A stretch of 64,000 bases of DNA. Origin: Acidobacteriaceae bacterium (GTDB lineage: Bacteria > Acidobacteriota > Terriglobia > Terriglobales > Acidobacteriaceae). Every line of letters starts with the position of its first letter. Within the stretch, counting starts at the first letter, position 1. Shown here in pieces: positions 4,976 to 64,000 of the stretch. The translations under genes were made by a program, and so were the position numbers. The notes below the pieces were generated by a model. The model had not been told where the DNA came from. It ran no database searches and worked only from the letters and a program-made list of their open reading frames with translations. The stretch is taken from the NCBI GenBank assembly GCA_027452245.1, contig DAIDGW010000154.1:1-64000 (forward strand), written 5' to 3'.

Positions 4976-6313
4976 TCAGTCCTTTACCGCCCTATCGGTT
5001 ATCTCGAGGCCTTTGTCGATAATGGCGAATGCCTCCCGCAGTTGCTGTTCATTAATGCACAGTGGCGGATTGGTAAAGAACGTGTTCCAACGGACAAGCG
5101 TATAGAGCCCTTGCTCGCGGAAGAAGCGGGCAAGCGCCGTCATCTCTTCCGACGCGCCATTGAACGGAGCCATCGGCTGCATCGTTTTGCGGCTGCGCAC
5201 TAGTTCGAAAATTCCGAAAAGCCCAATCGAACGCATTGCTCCAACCGACGGATGCTTCTTCTGCATCTCGACGCCCCATTCCTTGAGGATTGCACCCATG
5301 TTGCGCGTGTTCTCGATCAAACGATCTTCTTCATACACGCGGATGGTCGCAAGAGCCGTTGCACATCCCATGGGATGGCTGTTATACGTGAGGCCTCCGT
5401 AGAACACTTTGTCCTGGAAGTGCTGCGCAATGTGATGCCGCATCCCCACGCAGCCGAGGGGAAGATAGCTGCTGGTCAGGCCCTTCGCCATGCAGATCAG
5501 GTCGGGCACCACTTTCCAGTGATCGATGGCGAACCACTCGCCCGTGCGGCCAAATCCCGCCATCACTTCATCGGCGATCATCAGGATGCCATACTTATCG
5601 CACAGCTTCCGCACACCCTGCATGTATCCGTCCGGCGGGATCAAAATGCCGTTCGTCCCGACGACACTTTCGAGAATGAAGGCCGCGATCGTGTGCGCGC
5701 CTTCGAGTTGAATGACTTCCTCAATCATAGCCAGCGACTCTTCCGCGGAATCCCATCCCCGCTCGATGCCATGATATGGATCCAGCACACGCACCACTCC
5801 CGGAATGCCGGGTTCGGCGGCCCATCGGCGCGGATCGCCCGTCAGCGTAATGCTTCCCGCCGTCGCGCCATGATACGACCGGTACCGCGCCATGATTTTG
5901 TGACGTCCCGTGAAGAAACGCGCCAGTTTGATCGCGTTTTCGTTGGCCTCGGCGCCGCCATTGGTGAAGAAGAATGTGTCGATATCGCCGGGTGCGATCT
6001 CGGCGAGCTTGGCTCCAAGTCGGGCTCGTGGCTCGTGCGCCATGAACGGATTAGCGTAAGCCAGCGTTTCTGCCTGCTCTTTGATCGCTTGAATGACACG
6101 CTCGTCACCGTGGCCGATGTTCACGGACATGAGTTGGCTATTGAAGTCGATGAAGCGCTTGCCCTCGGGTGTCCAAAAGTAGATGCCCTTCGCACGCGCG
6201 ACCGGAATGGGATCGACCTTAGATTGTGCCGACCATTCGAATAGGGTGTGCTTCTTCGTGAGATCGACCATTTCCTGGCCAGTCATCGTGGGAGTGCTAA
6301 GTGTAGTAGTCAT
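4976..6313 (-). CDS. Class III aminotransferase, omega-amino acid:pyruvate type
   Basis: 445 residues, PLP fold type I. The phosphate-binding segment NGGAEANENAIKLAR is near residues 118-132 and the SYHGAT motif near 146-151. ADEV (247-250) places the aspartate that pairs with the pyridine nitrogen, and Lys277 (MAKGLTSSYLPLG) is the Schiff-base lysine. The variant resembles taurine- or beta-alanine-pyruvate aminotransferases. Next upstream is methylmalonate-semialdehyde dehydrogenase, which would oxidise the malonate semialdehyde formed from beta-alanine. Last gene of the run before the terminator at 4917. The exact amine substrate is inferred from neighbours, not from sequence. Confidence 0.85.
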   Translation of the reverse strand: MTTTLSTPTMTGQEMVDLTKKHTLFEWSAQSKVDPIPVARAKGIYFWTPEGKRFIDFNSQLMSVNIGHGDERVIQAIKEQAETLAYANPFMAHEPRARLGAKLAEIAPGDIDTFFFTNGGAEANENAIKLARFFTGRHKIMARYRSYHGATAGSITLTGDPRRWAAEPGIPGVVRVLDPYHGIERGWDSAEESLAMIEEVIQLEGAHTIAAFILESVVGTNGILIPPDGYMQGVRKLCDKYGILMIADEVMAGFGRTGEWFAIDHWKVVPDLICMAKGLTSSYLPLGCVGMRHHIAQHFQDKVFYGGLTYNSHPMGCATALATIRVYEEDRLIENTRNMGAILKEWGVEMQKKHPSVGAMRSIGLFGIFELVRSRKTMQPMAPFNGASEEMTALARFFREQGLYTLVRWNTFFTNPPLCINEQQLREAFAIIDKGLEITDRAVKD

Positions 6314-6443
6314 TTATGACCTCAGTATTCAGTGCCAAAAGATCGCAGATATTTGCTGATCGGGTGACCAAGTAATTGAGTGATTGAAAAACAAGGTACG
6401 AACTTCGATCACACAATTACATAATTCAATCACCCAATGCCTT

Positions 6444-7934
6444 CTAAAATTTCCGGCTGTGTTCTTTCGCCCAGCGCTCGATCACAACCTTCTTATCAGT
6501 ATAAAACTCAATCGCGTCTCGCCCCTGTCCGTGCAGATCGCCGAAAAAGCTATTCTTCCATCCGCTGAAGGGGAAATAGGCCATGGGAGCGGCGACTCCA
6601 ATATTGATGCCGATATTTCCGGCCGGAGCTTCGTACCGGAAGCGCCGTGCGGCCGCTCCGCTCGACGTAAAGAGCGATGCCTGGTTGCCATAGGCGCTGC
6701 GTTCCAGAAATGCCAGCGCTTCATCCATGTCATTCGCGTGAATCAGGCTTAGTACTGGACCGAAGATTTCCGTGTCAGCCAACTCGCTCGTAGCAGGCAC
6801 GCCATCAAGAATTGTCGGCTTTACAAAATTTCCGGATTCGTAGCTGGGGATTTTCGAGTTGCGCCCGTCGAGCAGAACTTTCGCCCCTTGCTTTTCGCCA
6901 GCGCCGATCAGCGATTCAATCCGGTTCTTGCTTTCCTTTGTAATGACGGGGCCCATCTGCACCCCGGCATCAAGCCCGTTACCGACCTTCAAGCTGGCAG
7001 CAGATTCTGTAATCGAATCTCGAAATGTCTTCTGCGCTTCGCCGATCGTGACAGCAACCGATACCGCCAGGCAGCGCTGGCCGGCGCATCCGAACGCACT
7101 GTCGCTGATGATCTGCGTCGCCATCTGCATATCCGCGTCCGGAAGAACAATGACGTGATTTTTGGCTCCGCCCTGACATTGACATCGCTTCCCCTTTTCG
7201 CCGGACCGCGCATAGATGTAGCGCGCAACCGGTGTCGATCCGACAAAGCTAATGGCGCGAACTTTGGGATGATCGATCAGCGCATCAACGACTGCCTTTC
7301 CACCATTGATCAACGTCACCACGCCTTTTGGCAAGCCCGTCTTTTCCAGCAGTTCGAACCCGAAACGCATGGTGAGCGGCACGCGCTCGCTGGGCTTCAG
7401 GATGAATGTGTTGCCCGTCGCAATCGCATACGGCAGAAACCAGAACGGAATCATCCCCGGAAAATTGAACGGCGTGATCGCGGCCACCACTCCCAGCGGC
7501 TGGCGCACCATCGTCTCATCAATTCCGCGCGCCACATCCTCCAGGTTGTAGCCCTGCATCATCATTGGGATACCGCATGCAACTTCCACATTCTCGATCG
7601 CACGGCGCATCTCGGCCTTGGCTTCGGCGAACGTCTTTCCGTTTTCCTGAGAGATGATGCGCCCAAAGTCATCCAGATGCTCTTCCATCAGCATCTTCAG
7701 CTTGAACAGTGGCTGAATCCGGTCTTCCGGGGGAGTGCGCCGCCACTCGGGCCACGCCACTGCAGCCGCCTCAATCGCCGCATTCACTTCGGAGGCTTCG
7801 GCTAGCGGCACTGAGGCGATCGCCTCGCCAGTCGCTGGATTCACCACATCGCGCCATTCGCGGGATTTCGATTCCGTCCACTGGCCGTTGATGTAATGCG
7901 TGAGTCGGTTCACGGAAGGTGCGGCTACGGTCAT
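6444..7934 (-). CDS. mmsA: CoA-acylating (methyl)malonate-semialdehyde dehydrogenase
   Basis: 496 residues of aldehyde dehydrogenase fold. NAD-binding [14 protein letters not shown] is near residue 155. The nucleophile lies in [10 protein letters not shown]: the second cysteine, about Cys288, is at the position of the catalytic Cys of characterised MMSDH/IolA. As in that family, the general-base glutamate region of hydrolytic ALDHs is replaced ([15 protein letters not shown]). The reaction is malonate or methylmalonate semialdehyde + CoA + NAD to acetyl- or propionyl-CoA, CO2 and NADH. I prefer the ATG at 7934, preceded by AAAGG 10 bases away, over a GTG six codons upstream. Upstream and downstream genes are aminotransferases that would supply its substrate. 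Confidence 0.9.
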
Positions 7935-54953: not shown

Positions 54954-55151
54954 GTGAAGGAACAGACGCCGCATCGCCCCAAGGCTCCCGCGAAGAATCC
55001 CACGGGTGATTTCGGCCAGTTCACAGATTTTATGCGGAGACTTGTAGCCGTTCCGCATTCCGAAATAAAAGCTAAGCTCGACGCCGAGAAGCAAGCGAAG
55101 CAACGGCAGAAGAAACGCGCTTCTTCCCGCGCTGCCCACGGTAAAGATTAG
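54954..55151 (+). CDS. IS1595-associated small accessory protein
   Basis: 65 residues from a GTG. Central FTDFMRRLVAVPHSEIKAKL followed by a strongly basic tail (KQAKQRQKKRASSRAA). Proteins of this type are often found next to IS1595-family transposases, probably part of the element; function unknown (perhaps DNA binding or transposition control). Divergent from the ATPase gene (68 bases) and convergent with the transposase, overlapping its stop by four bases. Confidence 0.6.
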   Translation: MKEQTPHRPKAPAKNPTGDFGQFTDFMRRLVAVPHSEIKAKLDAEKQAKQRQKKRASSRAAHGKD

Positions 55152-56140
55152 AACGGCGTTTCACCCACCTTGCCAGTCACCTCCGCAAAGGTTAACCGCT
55201 TCCCCGCGATCTGCGATAAGGCTAAAGTGAATCTTTCCGCGTCGGACAGTTTACGCCCATTCTCATCTTTGCGGTTATTGAATCGGAACATTTGTTCGTC
55301 AAGGTAACGATGCAAATGGAATGGTTCTACGGCAACGTAGGTTCCATTCAATCCGCGCTTGAGCAAACTCCAGAAATTCTCTAATCCATTGGTGTGAACC
55401 TGACCGCTGACGTGTCGCTCCACGTGGTTAACGAACTCATGAGTATATTCCTTCGGAAGCGAGCGATAGACTTTGGCTTCATCGGTATAGATTTTCGATC
55501 CGGGCGCTACGTGATCCAGCACGGCAGTCTGGAGAGACGCGCGATTTACTTTAGGAACTACCGTAGCACGGACCTTACGCTGTTCACGCTCCAGCACGCC
55601 CCACACCGCAGTTTTATTAACCAGAGCCGCATCACCGAGCGAGCTTTCCCGTGCAACCTTGAACTGTGCACGACGTTTCGCGCTCATGTTTCGCGCCTTG
55701 CCACCAATGAAGGTTTCATCCGATTCGACTTCGCTTCCCGGCCCACCCATCTTGACGAAGGTTCCGCTCTGCATTGCAAGGCGAATGCGATGCATCATGA
55801 ACCACGCGGATTTCTGGGTAATCCCCAGAGCGCGACTGATTTCGTAGGACGAAATTCCATTCCGGCAAGTGGAAAGCAACCAAGTAGCAGGGAGCCACTT
55901 TTCTAAGGCAATCGGCGAATCCTCAAAAACGGTTCCGATCTTGAGCGAGAACTTTTGCTTGGGATGCTCGCCGTAGCAGCGATAGAGCCGCGCTTTCTCA
56001 AGGTAGGTGACTTTTTCGGAGCCGCAGTAGGGGCAGCGCACCTTACCATCCGACCAGCGCACGGAGATCATGAACTGGCGGCAGTTCTCATATTCGGAGA
56101 AGAACTGGATTGCTTCTTGGAGAGTCTGTGGGCCTTTCAT
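55148..56140 (-). CDS. IS1595 family transposase
   Basis: 330 residues, full length. N-terminal zinc ribbon CPYCGSEKV...YRCYGEHPKQKF, an HTH-like SSYEISRALGITQKSAWFMMHRIRL in two overlapping pieces, and the ISXO2-like catalytic core: SDETFIGGKARN, IYTDEAKVYRSL and HTNGLENFWSLLKRGLNGTY supply the DDE-type acidic residues. No frameshift or missing motif, so probably active. Starts 26 bases inside the right inverted repeat. Confidence 0.93.
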   Translation of the reverse strand: MKGPQTLQEAIQFFSEYENCRQFMISVRWSDGKVRCPYCGSEKVTYLEKARLYRCYGEHPKQKFSLKIGTVFEDSPIALEKWLPATWLLSTCRNGISSYEISRALGITQKSAWFMMHRIRLAMQSGTFVKMGGPGSEVESDETFIGGKARNMSAKRRAQFKVARESSLGDAALVNKTAVWGVLEREQRKVRATVVPKVNRASLQTAVLDHVAPGSKIYTDEAKVYRSLPKEYTHEFVNHVERHVSGQVHTNGLENFWSLLKRGLNGTYVAVEPFHLHRYLDEQMFRFNNRKDENGRKLSDAERFTLALSQIAGKRLTFAEVTGKVGETPF

Positions 56141-60802: not shown

Positions 60803-62071
60803 CTACGCTCGCCCGATTCCCACGTATTCGAATCCCAAGGCGCGCAGGCGCGTGGGATCGAGCACATTCTTCGTGTCCACGATGATGGGCTTTTTCAGCA
60901 GGTGCTTGATGCGGTCGAAATCCAGTGCGCGAAATTCCGGCCAGCCGGTCCCAACCACTAATGCATCGACGCCTTCCGCGGCGGCATATGCCGTATCGCA
61001 ATAACGCACCGATCCATTGAGACGCTGTTTCGCTTCCGGAATCGCCACCGGATCGTACGCCCGCACGCGCGCTCCCTTGGAAACCAGCGTTTCGGCCAAC
61101 CGTACTGAAGAAGATCCAGCCACCGAATTCGTGTTCGGCTTGAATGACAATCCCAAAATCCCTACGTCTTTGTTTTCCACCGAATTCAGCGCGATGGCGA
61201 TTTTATCGACCAGACGCTCGGCCAGTGTGTGATTCACATCGCGCGCCGCACTCAGCACGCGCAGCGGAATGCCGTTCGATTGCGCCAGGTCGGCCAGCGA
61301 ATCCATGTCGGATTCGGCAAATAATCCGCCCATGCCTGCGCCCGGCTGCAGGCAGCGCGGAGCGATTTTCTTGTCGAGCCCCAGCGCCAGCGCAAGATTC
61401 ACCGCATCGGCGTTCACGCGCTCGCACAACGAAGCCACTTCGTTGATGAATGAAATCTTGGTGGCCACGAAAGCGGTCGCCGCTTCGCGCACCAATTCCG
61501 CCGTTGCCTGATTCGTGACGATCACGGGAACGCCGCGCATCACCAGCGGATGGAAGATCTGCTTCAGCACCTGCACGGCTTCGCCCGAGGTCGTTCCCAG
61601 GATCAGCCGGTCCGGCCAATTGAAGTCTTCGACGGCGCAGCCATCGGTAAAGAACATCGGTTGCGAAACGATGGTCGCTTGCAGCCCCCCATCGTTCGCC
61701 GCCTTCTGGATGGCATTCGCGGTTCCGACCGCAACCGGGGTGACGATGGTGAGGATCGGAGGTTTGGCGGCCAACTTGGCAATCCGCAACACCAGGTCGC
61801 CGAGGTTGGCCGCACTGTCTTCGGCCAGGAAAATGACTTGGGTCTTACGGGCGAACGATTCGAGGTCGGTCGAATAGGCCAGCCGTCCGGCGCGCACGTT
61901 GCGGCGGATCACTTCCTTTAAGTTTTTTTCGTAAAAGGGGATGTTCCCCTGCGCCAGATCGACCATGCGCGTCCGGTCCGGATGGCAGCATGAGACTGGA
62001 GTACCAAAATCTGCCAAGCACGCCGAAATGACTGTTCCCAGATATCCCGACCCGTAAACGCCGATTTGCAT
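60803..62071 (-). CDS. UDP-glucose 6-dehydrogenase homologue lacking catalytic residues
   Basis: 422 residues from the ATG at 62071 (an upstream frame extension is not conserved). Overall fold matches nucleotide-sugar dehydrogenases: GVYGSGYLG for NAD, NIPFYEKNL, VTPVAVGT, ATKISFINEVASLCE, and KDVGILGLSFKPNTNSV in the UDP-binding part. The active-site stretch GxGGSCFPKD reads GMGGLFAESD: the nucleophilic Cys is Phe251 and the Lys is Ser254. The catalytic Glu loop (PEFLREG in true enzymes) reads PMFFTDG (138-144). So normal UDP-glucuronate synthesis is unlikely; a binding or regulatory protein, or different chemistry, is possible. Single gene. Confidence 0.85.
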   Translation of the reverse strand: MQIGVYGSGYLGTVISACLADFGTPVSCCHPDRTRMVDLAQGNIPFYEKNLKEVIRRNVRAGRLAYSTDLESFARKTQVIFLAEDSAANLGDLVLRIAKLAAKPPILTIVTPVAVGTANAIQKAANDGGLQATIVSQPMFFTDGCAVEDFNWPDRLILGTTSGEAVQVLKQIFHPLVMRGVPVIVTNQATAELVREAATAFVATKISFINEVASLCERVNADAVNLALALGLDKKIAPRCLQPGAGMGGLFAESDMDSLADLAQSNGIPLRVLSAARDVNHTLAERLVDKIAIALNSVENKDVGILGLSFKPNTNSVAGSSSVRLAETLVSKGARVRAYDPVAIPEAKQRLNGSVRYCDTAYAAAEGVDALVVGTGWPEFRALDFDRIKHLLKKPIIVDTKNVLDPTRLRALGFEYVGIGRA

Positions 62072-62245
62072 GCGCCCGATCTCTCCGTGGAAAGCCGCGC
62101 AGGATGTGGCCTCTGCCGGTCGTTTCCCAAAGCCAACCAATATCTTATGTATCGCGGCAGAGGTGCCTTCGCAACGCACGCAAGGGAAATGTACCTGGGA
62201 TCAAGCTGCGGTGCAGAAAGTAATACCGTAACCCGAAAGTAAGTG

Positions 62246-62788
62246 TTACCGGTGGACCAGCTTGCCCAGCTGGAAGGCCGCCAGATCAATCCAGCAATTG
62301 GTGTCTTCTTCCCGCACAAAGCTCAATCGTTCCAGCAGGATGCGGCGATTCCCGTGATATTGCGCCCAGCGCCGGCGGGCGGTCTCATAGGCTTGCTGCG
62401 CGAGCTTCTGCTCAGCCATTTTCACGATGGTGAGGTGGGGAATATAGGGCCACTCTTCGGTGTATACCAGCGCCTGGGTATTGAGCAGGTTGTGCAGCTC
62501 CGTCATCCGCGAGGCGGCATGGTTCACCTTGATAAATACAGTGGGGGTTTTGGGAAAGAAGTTCTCGACGTCTCCTAGATTGACCTCAAACGGCTCTGCC
62601 TGTCCGCACAGGCGCTCCAGTGTTTCCAGGGCCGCCGTTTCGGTTGCGGGCAGCAGCCGGGGAGGCAGGATGGTGAGGTGGGCGGCCAGATGAGGCAGTT
62701 CCGGATGCAGTTCGCGCCGGAGGTTCTCGACGAACTCTCCCACGGGATTCCTGACGTAAGCTACCAGCGAGTAGCGCGGGCTCTGCAT
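62246..62788 (-). CDS. 2'-5' RNA ligase family (2H phosphoesterase) protein
   Basis: 180 residues. The two H-x-T/S-x motifs are HLTILPP (about residue 37) and HLTIVKM (about 118), spaced as in LigT-like 2H phosphoesterases. YSLVAYVRNPVGEFVENLR and FEVNLGDVENFFP fit the two-lobed fold. Members open or form 2'-5' or cyclic phosphodiester bonds in RNA or small nucleotides. Between the UGDH homologue and a small regulator; no functional link seen. Confidence 0.85.
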   Translation of the reverse strand: MQSPRYSLVAYVRNPVGEFVENLRRELHPELPHLAAHLTILPPRLLPATETAALETLERLCGQAEPFEVNLGDVENFFPKTPTVFIKVNHAASRMTELHNLLNTQALVYTEEWPYIPHLTIVKMAEQKLAQQAYETARRRWAQYHGNRRILLERLSFVREEDTNCWIDLAAFQLGKLVHR

Positions 62789-63457: not shown

Positions 63458-64000
63458 ATGACGAATTTTCGGTTTCGTTTCATTGTCGCTATGGCGGTGG
63501 CTTTTGCGGCCCTGCTCTCTTCCGGAATTGTTTCTTATCACGAAACCCTTCAGCATCAGCAGACGGAACAATGGGTTTCTCATACCCTAGTAGTCTTGCA
63601 GACGCTCGCGTCCTTTCGCGGGGCGATGATGGCCGCCGAGGCGGATCAGCGAATCTTTCTCTTAAGCCGCGATCCCGGTTACGGCGACGAATACAAAGCG
63701 CAATTCTCGCGCTCGCGGGACCTCCTCGCCCATCTCACACAACTTACCTCCGATAATCCGCGGCAGCAAGATCTGCTACGCCGCATAGACATGTCAGTCG
63801 CGGATTTGCGCCTGGAACTCGAGACAGAAGTTCAAAACCCTAAGGACAAAGCTTCCGCCCAGGCCGCCGTGGCACGATCAGAAACTCCAAGAAACGTCGT
63901 GCTCTCGGGCCTGCAAAGCCTGATCGGCCAGATGGAAAGAGAGGAGAACAGATTACTGCAGCAACGGTCAGCGGATGAAAAGGGTGCCGCGCTGCAGGCC
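63458..64000 (+). CDS. CHASE3-domain sensor protein, N-terminal part (3' truncated by window)
   Basis: Frame open from the ATG at 63458 to the window end (181 residues). N-terminal membrane helix (FIVAMAVAFAALLSSGIVSY), then a periplasmic CHASE3 domain: LQTLASFRGAMMAAEADQRIFL, LSRDPGYGDEYKAQFS and a helix with LTSDNPRQQDLLRRIDMSVADL. CHASE3 is a helical sensory domain of histidine kinases, adenylate cyclases and methyl-accepting proteins. The output domain lies beyond the window; a histidine kinase is the most common outcome. Confidence 0.85.
   Translation, partial: MTNFRFRFIVAMAVAFAALLSSGIVSYHETLQHQQTEQWVSHTLVVLQTLASFRGAMMAAEADQRIFLLSRDPGYGDEYKAQFSRSRDLLAHLTQLTSDNPRQQDLLRRIDMSVADLRLELETEVQNPKDKASAQAAVARSETPRNVVLSGLQSLIGQMEREENRLLQQRSADEKGAALQA

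What the first reader, a model, noticed from the sequence alone, without database searches (positions are those of the whole stretch)
60803..62071. UDP-glucose dehydrogenase homologue without its catalytic cysteine
In the aligned active-site segment the nucleophile Cys is Phe251 and the Lys is Ser254. The Glu of PEFLREG is Met, and the AE..K.xxNAFLA segment has Arg, Glu and Thr (AELVREAATAFVA). The Rossmann and UDP-binding parts and the length are preserved and there is no frameshift. Several active-site losses in an otherwise conserved protein suggest a pseudoenzyme with a new role.
Basis: partly seen in the sequence, partly recalled or inferred. Interest (0 to 1): 0.6.

Follow-up and report, generated by a model that had tools for sequence, protein, structure and literature searches.

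The report
Conserved dead UDP-glucose dehydrogenase relative
A family of soil bacteria has kept, under strong selection, a look-alike of a sugar-oxidising enzyme whose catalytic and cofactor-holding parts are gone, usually next to a gene for an RNA/nucleotide-cleaving enzyme, which suggests it now binds a molecule instead of converting it.

Summary
The gene lies on the minus strand (62071 to 60803, 422 codons, no frameshift), and the catalytic Cys, Lys, Asn and Glu are Phe251, Arg195, Thr199 and Met139. It is not an error or a decaying gene. All 99 full-length members analysed, down to 58% identity and including one from a complete single-contig genome, lack the cysteine (Phe in 99 of 99). They form one fully supported clade within UDP-glucose dehydrogenases, found in 113 of 373 genomes of the window's family; median dN/dS is 0.12. 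(1) The NAD+ side is dismantled as well: Thr83 and Thr118 are lost, Ser117 is Thr, Arg327 is Ala, and the NAD loop is about 9 residues shorter. Fold-holding and UDP-diphosphate residues are kept (Lys311 in 99 of 99). (2) A two-histidine (2H) phosphoesterase gene with intact motifs lies upstream on the same strand in most members; other neighbours are scrambled. Best reading: a nucleotide(-sugar)-binding pseudoenzyme, not a UDP-glucose dehydrogenase, working with the 2H phosphoesterase. Loss of UGDH activity is near certain by sequence; ligand binding and the 2H link are inferred. New variant of a known kind.

The parts
60803..62071 (-). UGDH-like pseudoenzyme gene (here called UGDHL), 422 aa
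   Evidence: ORF; Pfam; model pLDDT 94.2, pTM 0.86
61304..61342 (-). Former catalytic segment, residues 244-256 GAGMGGLFAESDM (canonical GxGFGGSCFPKDx); Phe251 codon 61319-61321 in place of Cys, Ser254 in place of Lys, Asp255 kept
61634..61666 (-). SQPMFFTDGCA, residues 136-146 (canonical SNPEFLREGSA); Met139 for Glu, new invariant Cys145
61469..61501 (-). AELVREAATAF, residues 191-201 (canonical AELIKYAANAF); Arg195 for Lys204, Thr199 for Asn208
61721..61741 (-). TPVAVGT, residues 111-117 (canonical STVPVGT); Thr111 for Ser117, Pro112 for Thr118
61802..61825 (-). Shortened NAD loop, residues 83-90 AEDSAANL (canonical AVGTPPxxDGSADL); Thr83 lost, about 9 residues fewer
61112..61141 (-). KPNTNSVAGS, residues 311-320; Lys311 (diphosphate lysine, Lys320 of SpUDPGDH) kept, Arg327 equivalent is Ala318
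   Evidence: roles from PMC4794789
62246..62788 (-). 2H phosphoesterase (PF13563), 180 aa, directly upstream; both HxTx motifs intact (H37, H118)
62072..62245 (-). Intergenic stretch of 174 nt between the two genes; 133-363 nt in the window and the 63 loci where the two genes lie within 450 nt

Best explanation
The gene encodes a pseudoenzyme that arose once, in or before an ancestor within the window's family of Acidobacteriota (Terriglobia), from a UDP-glucose dehydrogenase. It cannot carry out the two-step NAD+-dependent oxidation: the nucleophile, the lysine and asparagine that stabilise the substrate, the water/nicotinamide threonines and the arginine that grips the NAD+ pyrophosphate are gone, and the NAD loop is shortened. 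The fold and the residues holding the UDP diphosphate and the active-site loops are kept. It most likely acts as a binding protein or sensor for a UDP-nucleotide (sugar) or similar ligand, and so controls or assists a partner; the 2H phosphoesterase encoded upstream is the best candidate. Shown by sequence: the losses, the retention pattern, single origin, purifying selection, linkage. Inferred: loss of activity, UDP-ligand binding, regulatory role, the 2H partner.
For: Losses: of the 18 residues reported as invariant in 229 NDP-sugar dehydrogenases (PMC4794789, section 4 read), the window keeps 11 and changes 7 (T83, S117, T118, E141, K204, N208, C260). Over the 17 that map to one column, clade members keep 9-12 and canonical rows 16-17. 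Arg327, 99% conserved and forming a salt bridge to the NAD+ pyrophosphate in that paper, is Ala in 93 of 99 and Arg in none. Kept: Lys320 (diphosphate) 99/99, Gly257 97/99, Glu201 99/99, Asn219 99/99, Asn287 94/99, Asp264 92/99. Selection: median dN/dS 0.116 over 1,038 pairs with dS < 1.5, of 3,403 pairs of 83 equal-length sequences. Of 23 canonical-conserved positions that changed, 13 are fixed at 95% or more in the clade (background 168 of 422). Single clade with SH-aLRT 100 and a stem of 1.19 changes per site (37 of the 99 members used). Fold: AF2 pLDDT 94.2, pTM 0.86. Partner: 2H gene in the fetched flank of 71 of 80 loci, all same strand, and of 15 of 20 distant loci. In the family survey 96 genomes hold both genes (113 UGDHL, 112 2H, of 373), and 82 of 97 UGDHL copies in those genomes have the 2H gene upstream within 1 kb. 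The next commonest neighbour family occurs in 21 of 101 loci.
Against: No assay exists, and ligand binding is inferred from retained residues alone. UGDHL occurs without a detected 2H gene in 17 of 113 genomes, among them all 9 UGDHL-bearing genomes of one genus (g10) and all 5 of another (g229). 2H occurs without a UGDHL match at the threshold in 16 genomes; of the 12 I read, 10 have a 2H gene standing alone and 2 have a split or cut-off UGDHL beside it. So neither needs the other. The two genes lie 133-363 nt apart where close, so co-transcription is unsure. Some UDP-side residues changed conservatively (Arg244->Lys in 86 of 99; Arg401->Lys in 99 of 99). The NAD ribose aspartate (residue 30) is still Asp in 16 of 99 members, so weak dinucleotide binding cannot be excluded.
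Confidence: 0.55

Rival explanations
1. It is still an enzyme with a different reaction: a relocated thiol (new invariant Cys240 or Cys145, both in loops near the UDP-sugar in UGDHs) or another residue does new chemistry on a UDP-linked substrate, perhaps without NAD.
For: Cys240 is Cys in 98 of 99 members where 71 of 73 canonical rows have Phe or Tyr; Cys145 is Cys in 99 of 99 where 54 of 73 canonical rows have Ser, Ala or Thr. In human UGDH residues 265-280 wrap around UDP-glucose (PMC3184952, passages seen), and the Phe at this place is, by my own reading of the motif, human Phe265. Asp255 is Asp in 92 of 99.
Against: Lys204, Asn208, Thr118 and Thr83 are all lost or replaced, and Asp255 becomes Glu, Asn or Gln in 7 of 99, odd for a catalytic base. 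Distances between the two cysteines could not be measured, since model coordinates are not among the files.
Confidence: 0.15
2. It is a regulatory subunit that joins a catalytic UGDH of the same cell in a mixed oligomer and tunes it.
For: UGDHs are dimers or hexamers with cross-subunit contacts (PMC3184952, passages). The window's genome also encodes five NDP-sugar dehydrogenases with the Cys. The central domain has many invariant columns in 31 members.
Against: No conserved neighbour family besides 2H was seen, so no conserved link to a canonical UGDH gene. Only 34% and 31% identical to the two intact UGDHs of the genome. The cross-subunit Arg244 is Lys in 86 of 99.
Confidence: 0.15
3. Decaying gene or sequencing error.
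For: Several active-site residues lost at once; most sources are metagenome-assembled genomes by record title. One relative (L174) is split over two frames.
Against: 99 full-length members share the change, median dN/dS is 0.116, and one member lies in a complete single-contig genome (G588).
Confidence: 0.01

Closest known systems
UDP-glucose 6-dehydrogenase, bacterial type (PDB 4a7p UgdG, 3gg2, 2y0c-e BceC)
   Same: Three domains in the same order, 33-37% identity, GxGxxG, diphosphate lysine, loop-holding asparagines, Asp264 equivalent
   Different: No catalytic Cys; Lys204, Asn208, Thr118, Thr83 and Arg327 replaced; NAD loop about 9 residues shorter
GDP-mannose 6-dehydrogenase (PDB 1mfz)
   Same: The AF2 model superposes on it over 406 residues at 2.6 A, Z 35.3; UGDHs give about 21 A over about 390 residues, which I read as a different placement of the C-terminal domain
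   Different: 23% identity; the domain placement may be an artefact of single-chain prediction; no catalytic Cys here
2H phosphoesterases (LigT/ThpR, B. subtilis YjcG, PDB 2d4g), for the upstream gene
   Same: PF13563 above cut-off; both HxT/S motifs in 108 of 108 aligned relatives; weak match to 2d4g, E 9e-4
   Different: Below the NCBIfam cut-offs for PRK13679 and TIGR02258; substrate unknown

Membership tests
NDP-sugar dehydrogenase enzymes (UDP-glucose dehydrogenase) | Three UGDH Pfam domains PF03721, PF00984, PF03720 | tested here: met
   all above gathering cut-off
NDP-sugar dehydrogenase enzymes (UDP-glucose dehydrogenase) | Catalytic cysteine (Cys260 of SpUDPGDH) | tested here: not met
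   Phe251, 99 of 99 members
NDP-sugar dehydrogenase enzymes (UDP-glucose dehydrogenase) | Lys204 and Asn208, electrostatic stabilisation of the substrate | tested here: not met
   Arg 98/99 (His 1) and Thr 99/99
NDP-sugar dehydrogenase enzymes (UDP-glucose dehydrogenase) | Thr83, Ser117, Thr118 and Arg327 at the NAD+ site | tested here: not met
   Thr83 column mixed (Thr in 18 of 99, Ser in the window, next to a gap), Ser117 Thr 96/99, Thr118 Pro 99/99, Arg327 Ala 93/99
NDP-sugar dehydrogenase enzymes (UDP-glucose dehydrogenase) | Rossmann GxGxxG | tested here: met
   Met in the window and 79 of 99 in all; third Gly is Ala or Ser in 20 of 99
NDP-sugar dehydrogenase enzymes (UDP-glucose dehydrogenase) | Lys320 binding the UDP diphosphate | tested here: met
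   99 of 99
NDP-sugar dehydrogenase enzymes (UDP-glucose dehydrogenase) | Oxidation of UDP-glucose with 2 NAD+ | not testable with these tools
   needs an assay
Pseudoenzyme | Homologous to an enzyme but lacking its catalytic residues, and conserved by selection | tested here: met
Pseudoenzyme | Measured lack of the parent activity | not testable with these tools
   needs an assay
2H phosphoesterase (upstream gene) | Two H-x-T/S-x motifs | tested here: met
   His37 and His118 108/108; Thr39 99/108 and Ser39 9/108; Thr120 108/108

The most novel reading that the evidence does not exclude
UGDHL and the 2H phosphoesterase form a previously undescribed two-protein module in which a dead NDP-sugar dehydrogenase senses a nucleotide(-sugar) signal and gates an RNA- or cyclic-nucleotide-cleaving 2H enzyme, linking cell-wall precursor state to RNA or nucleotide metabolism in Acidobacteriota.
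Probability: 0.2. Interest if true: 0.72.

Novelty: new variant of a known kind. Interest (0 to 1): 0.5.

Why it matters
The NCBIfam model that names nucleotide sugar dehydrogenases (TIGR03026) scores this protein above its cut-off, so pathway predictions for a widespread soil lineage would count an activity that is very probably absent. My library searches found no described pseudoenzyme of the NDP-sugar dehydrogenase family. This one shows a clean split: the NAD and redox side lost, the UDP side largely kept. Its linkage to a 2H phosphoesterase gives a testable partner in an enzyme family where, for many members, the physiological function is unknown (PMC5283653, start of abstract in the search listing only).

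Tried and rejected
Sequencing error and pseudogene were rejected.

A structured RNA leader ahead of the gene: a GC-rich inverted repeat with a short T run about 30-50 nt before the ATG looked shared by close relatives, but RNAalifold on the window and 35 of them found no consensus pairs, and I did not see it in the divergent members printed. Rfam at gathering threshold found only two tRNAs in the window. Not claimed.

The first structure job, with 31 clade sequences only, was poor (pLDDT 73.8, pTM 0.54) and was not used. The second, with 45 viral canonical homologues and 18 clade sequences, was good.

A search of viral contigs with the clade profile found no relative (17 stretches matched a pattern, none was confirmed). 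Plasmid records hold 702 matches, all under 60% identity; the 8 rows shown were 38.4% or less and were not examined for the Cys.

Papers: no hit for UGDH with catalytic cysteine and thiohemiacetal, UGDH with pseudoenzyme, or UGDH with catalytically inactive and 'lacks the catalytic'; three unrelated reviews for sugar dehydrogenase / pseudoenzyme / Rossmann / catalytic cysteine (listing only). No hit for Acidobacteria + Koribacter + UGDH.

Limits. Canonical rows from viral contigs (45 of 73) were recruited with the patterns GSCFPKD and NPEFLREG, so their Cys and Glu may be conserved by construction. The 26 Acidobacteriota rows came from the clade's own profile and all 26 have Cys; the 229-sequence alignment of PMC4794789 is independent. 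The 99 members leave out loci L088-L090 and L117-L146, fetched from genomes already represented or very close. Taxonomic spread outside Acidobacteriota was tested only by the one pattern scan (80 of 109 relatives kept, all Acidobacteriota by record title; the other 29 were not seen). Genomes of one family are not independent, so the Fisher p is not a fair probability. The tree is a quick search without bootstrap. In one search the 2H family itself shows in only 70 of 101 loci, because longer antisense ORFs were chosen over it in some; searches count it directly.

Full report
What is there. The gene is on the minus strand, from an ATG at 62071 to a stop ending at 60803 (422 aa). All three UGDH Pfam domains score above their cut-offs, NCBIfam TIGR03026 'nucleotide sugar dehydrogenase' is above its cut-off, and the nearest solved protein by sequence is UDP-glucose dehydrogenase 4a7p over residues 2-421.

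Not an accident. One pattern scan of the GTDB genome collection kept 80 loci of 109 relatives, all 80 from Acidobacteriota by record title, at 67-90% identity. Every one has Phe at the Cys position, a hydrophobic residue for the Glu and Thr for the Asn; the Lys is Arg, and His once. Over 99 full-length members (window, 78 of the 80, and the 20 new ones; L063 and L085 dropped as truncated) Cys is Phe in 99, while 73 of 73 canonical rows have Cys. Of those 73, 45 are viral and were recruited partly by the pattern GSCFPKD, so only the 26 Acidobacteriota rows and the two of the window's genome are an unbiased contrast. Median dN/dS is 0.116 over 1,038 pairs with dS below 1.5, out of 3,403 pairs of 83 equal-length sequences (range 0.01-0.60). 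The gene is under purifying selection.

Origin and spread. In a quick tree of 110 rows (37 of the 99 members) the clade is one branch with SH-aLRT 100 and a stem of 1.19 changes per site, set among canonical UGDHs; the nearest canonical row (L096, support 84) keeps the Cys. In 396 Acidobacteriota genomes only 4, all of the window's family, hold a member (675-847 bits); the next best score is 398 bits, and the 26 next-best loci that I read are canonical. In 373 genomes of the family 113 hold it, in 38 of 71 genera. So one loss, then long retention.

What was lost and what was kept. A published comparison of 229 NDP-sugar dehydrogenases gives 18 invariant residues with roles (PMC4794789, section 4 read in full). 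The window keeps 11 (three Rossmann glycines, Pro140, Glu201, Asn219, Gly257, Gly258, Asp264, Asn287, Lys320) and changes 7 (Thr83, Ser117, Thr118, Glu141, Lys204, Asn208, Cys260). Beyond these, Arg327, which grips the NAD+ pyrophosphate, is Ala in 93 of 99, and the stretch that holds Thr83 is about 9 residues shorter (21 against mostly 30-31). The losses fall mainly on the NAD+ and redox side. The residues for the UDP diphosphate (Lys320, 99 of 99) and for the UMP ribose (Gly257, 97 of 99), and most of those that hold the active-site loops, stay; Glu141, which also holds a loop, does not. Several lost positions are fixed to a new residue: Pro112, Thr199 and Phe251 in 99 of 99, Arg195 in 98 of 99. 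Others drift (positions 139, 143, 254). New invariant residues appear in loops of the former active site, above all Cys145 (99 of 99) and Cys240 (98 of 99). Against the simple picture, the NAD ribose Asp29 is still Asp in 16 of 99 (His in 79), and Asp264 is replaced in 7 of 99.

Structure. With viral canonical relatives in the alignment AF2 gives pLDDT 94.2 and pTM 0.86. UGDHs are the top Foldseek hits, but by whole-chain superposition the best match is GDP-mannose dehydrogenase 1mfz (2.6 A over 406 residues), while UGDHs fit at about 21 A. The model thus seems to place the C-terminal domain as in 1mfz. I would not build on this: it is a single-chain prediction of an oligomeric family.

The partner gene. 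The 180-aa gene just upstream (62246-62788, minus strand) is a 2H phosphoesterase, PF13563, with both histidine motifs intact in 108 of 108 aligned relatives. It is in the fetched flank of 71 of 80 loci, always on the same strand. Of the 9 without it, 4 have 263 bases or fewer upstream and 5 have 4.7-6 kb without it. Intergenic lengths are 133-363 nt in the window and 63 of those loci; in the other 8 the gap is 0.5-4.6 kb. Among 20 distant members the 2H gene lies upstream on the same strand in 15. The other neighbours are scrambled: the next commonest family is in 21 of 101 loci, at varied places. In the family survey 113 genomes have UGDHL, 112 the 2H gene and 96 both; 82 of 97 UGDHL copies in genomes with both have it upstream within 1 kb, 6 farther on the same contig and 9 on another contig. 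Against a strict unit: 17 genomes have UGDHL without a detected 2H, and 16 the reverse. I read 12 of those 16: one holds a split UGDHL, one a UGDHL cut by the contig end, and in 10 the 2H gene stands alone; the other 4 were not read.

How it may work. As a UGDH it is almost surely dead: without Cys the second oxidation has no covalent intermediate, and without Lys204, Asn208, Thr118, Thr83 and Arg327 neither substrate stabilisation nor NAD+ binding of the usual kind is expected (roles from PMC4794789, and passages of PMC3184952; that paper reports that loss of Lys alone, or of the Thr, reduces but does not abolish activity). I put this at about 0.93. The pattern of retention suggests it still binds a UDP-nucleotide or UDP-sugar, about 0.55. 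That it acts on or with the 2H enzyme is inferred from linkage alone. The window's genome encodes five further NDP-sugar dehydrogenases with the Cys, so UDP-glucuronate supply need not depend on this gene.

Known or new. I found no paper on a pseudoenzyme of this family nor on this gene in Acidobacteria, in a library that lacks most subscription journals. It is a new variant of a known kind: a pseudoenzyme clade from a family not known to me to have one.

Noticed in passing
window 62077-62155 (-) and the same place in 35 close relatives: GC-rich inverted repeat with a T run and an upstream TGTAAA-like box before the pseudoenzyme gene; seen also in some loci where the 2H gene lies 1-4.6 kb away, but RNAalifold gave no consensus structure.
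   Followed up: partly
L174 (G513:C168), locus 6151-7253: A UGDHL copy split over two frames next to an intact 2H gene: a broken copy or an assembly error.
   Followed up: no
L152, L153, L154, L166 (one genus, g10): Members without a detected 2H gene also lack one residue in the former catalytic loop (GS-LGGSF).
   Followed up: no
window 55148-56140 (-): Looks by eye like an IS1595-type transposase (zinc-finger then DDE-like part); not searched.
   Followed up: no
window 63458-64000 (+): Start of a protein with a CHASE3 sensor domain, running off the window.
   Followed up: no
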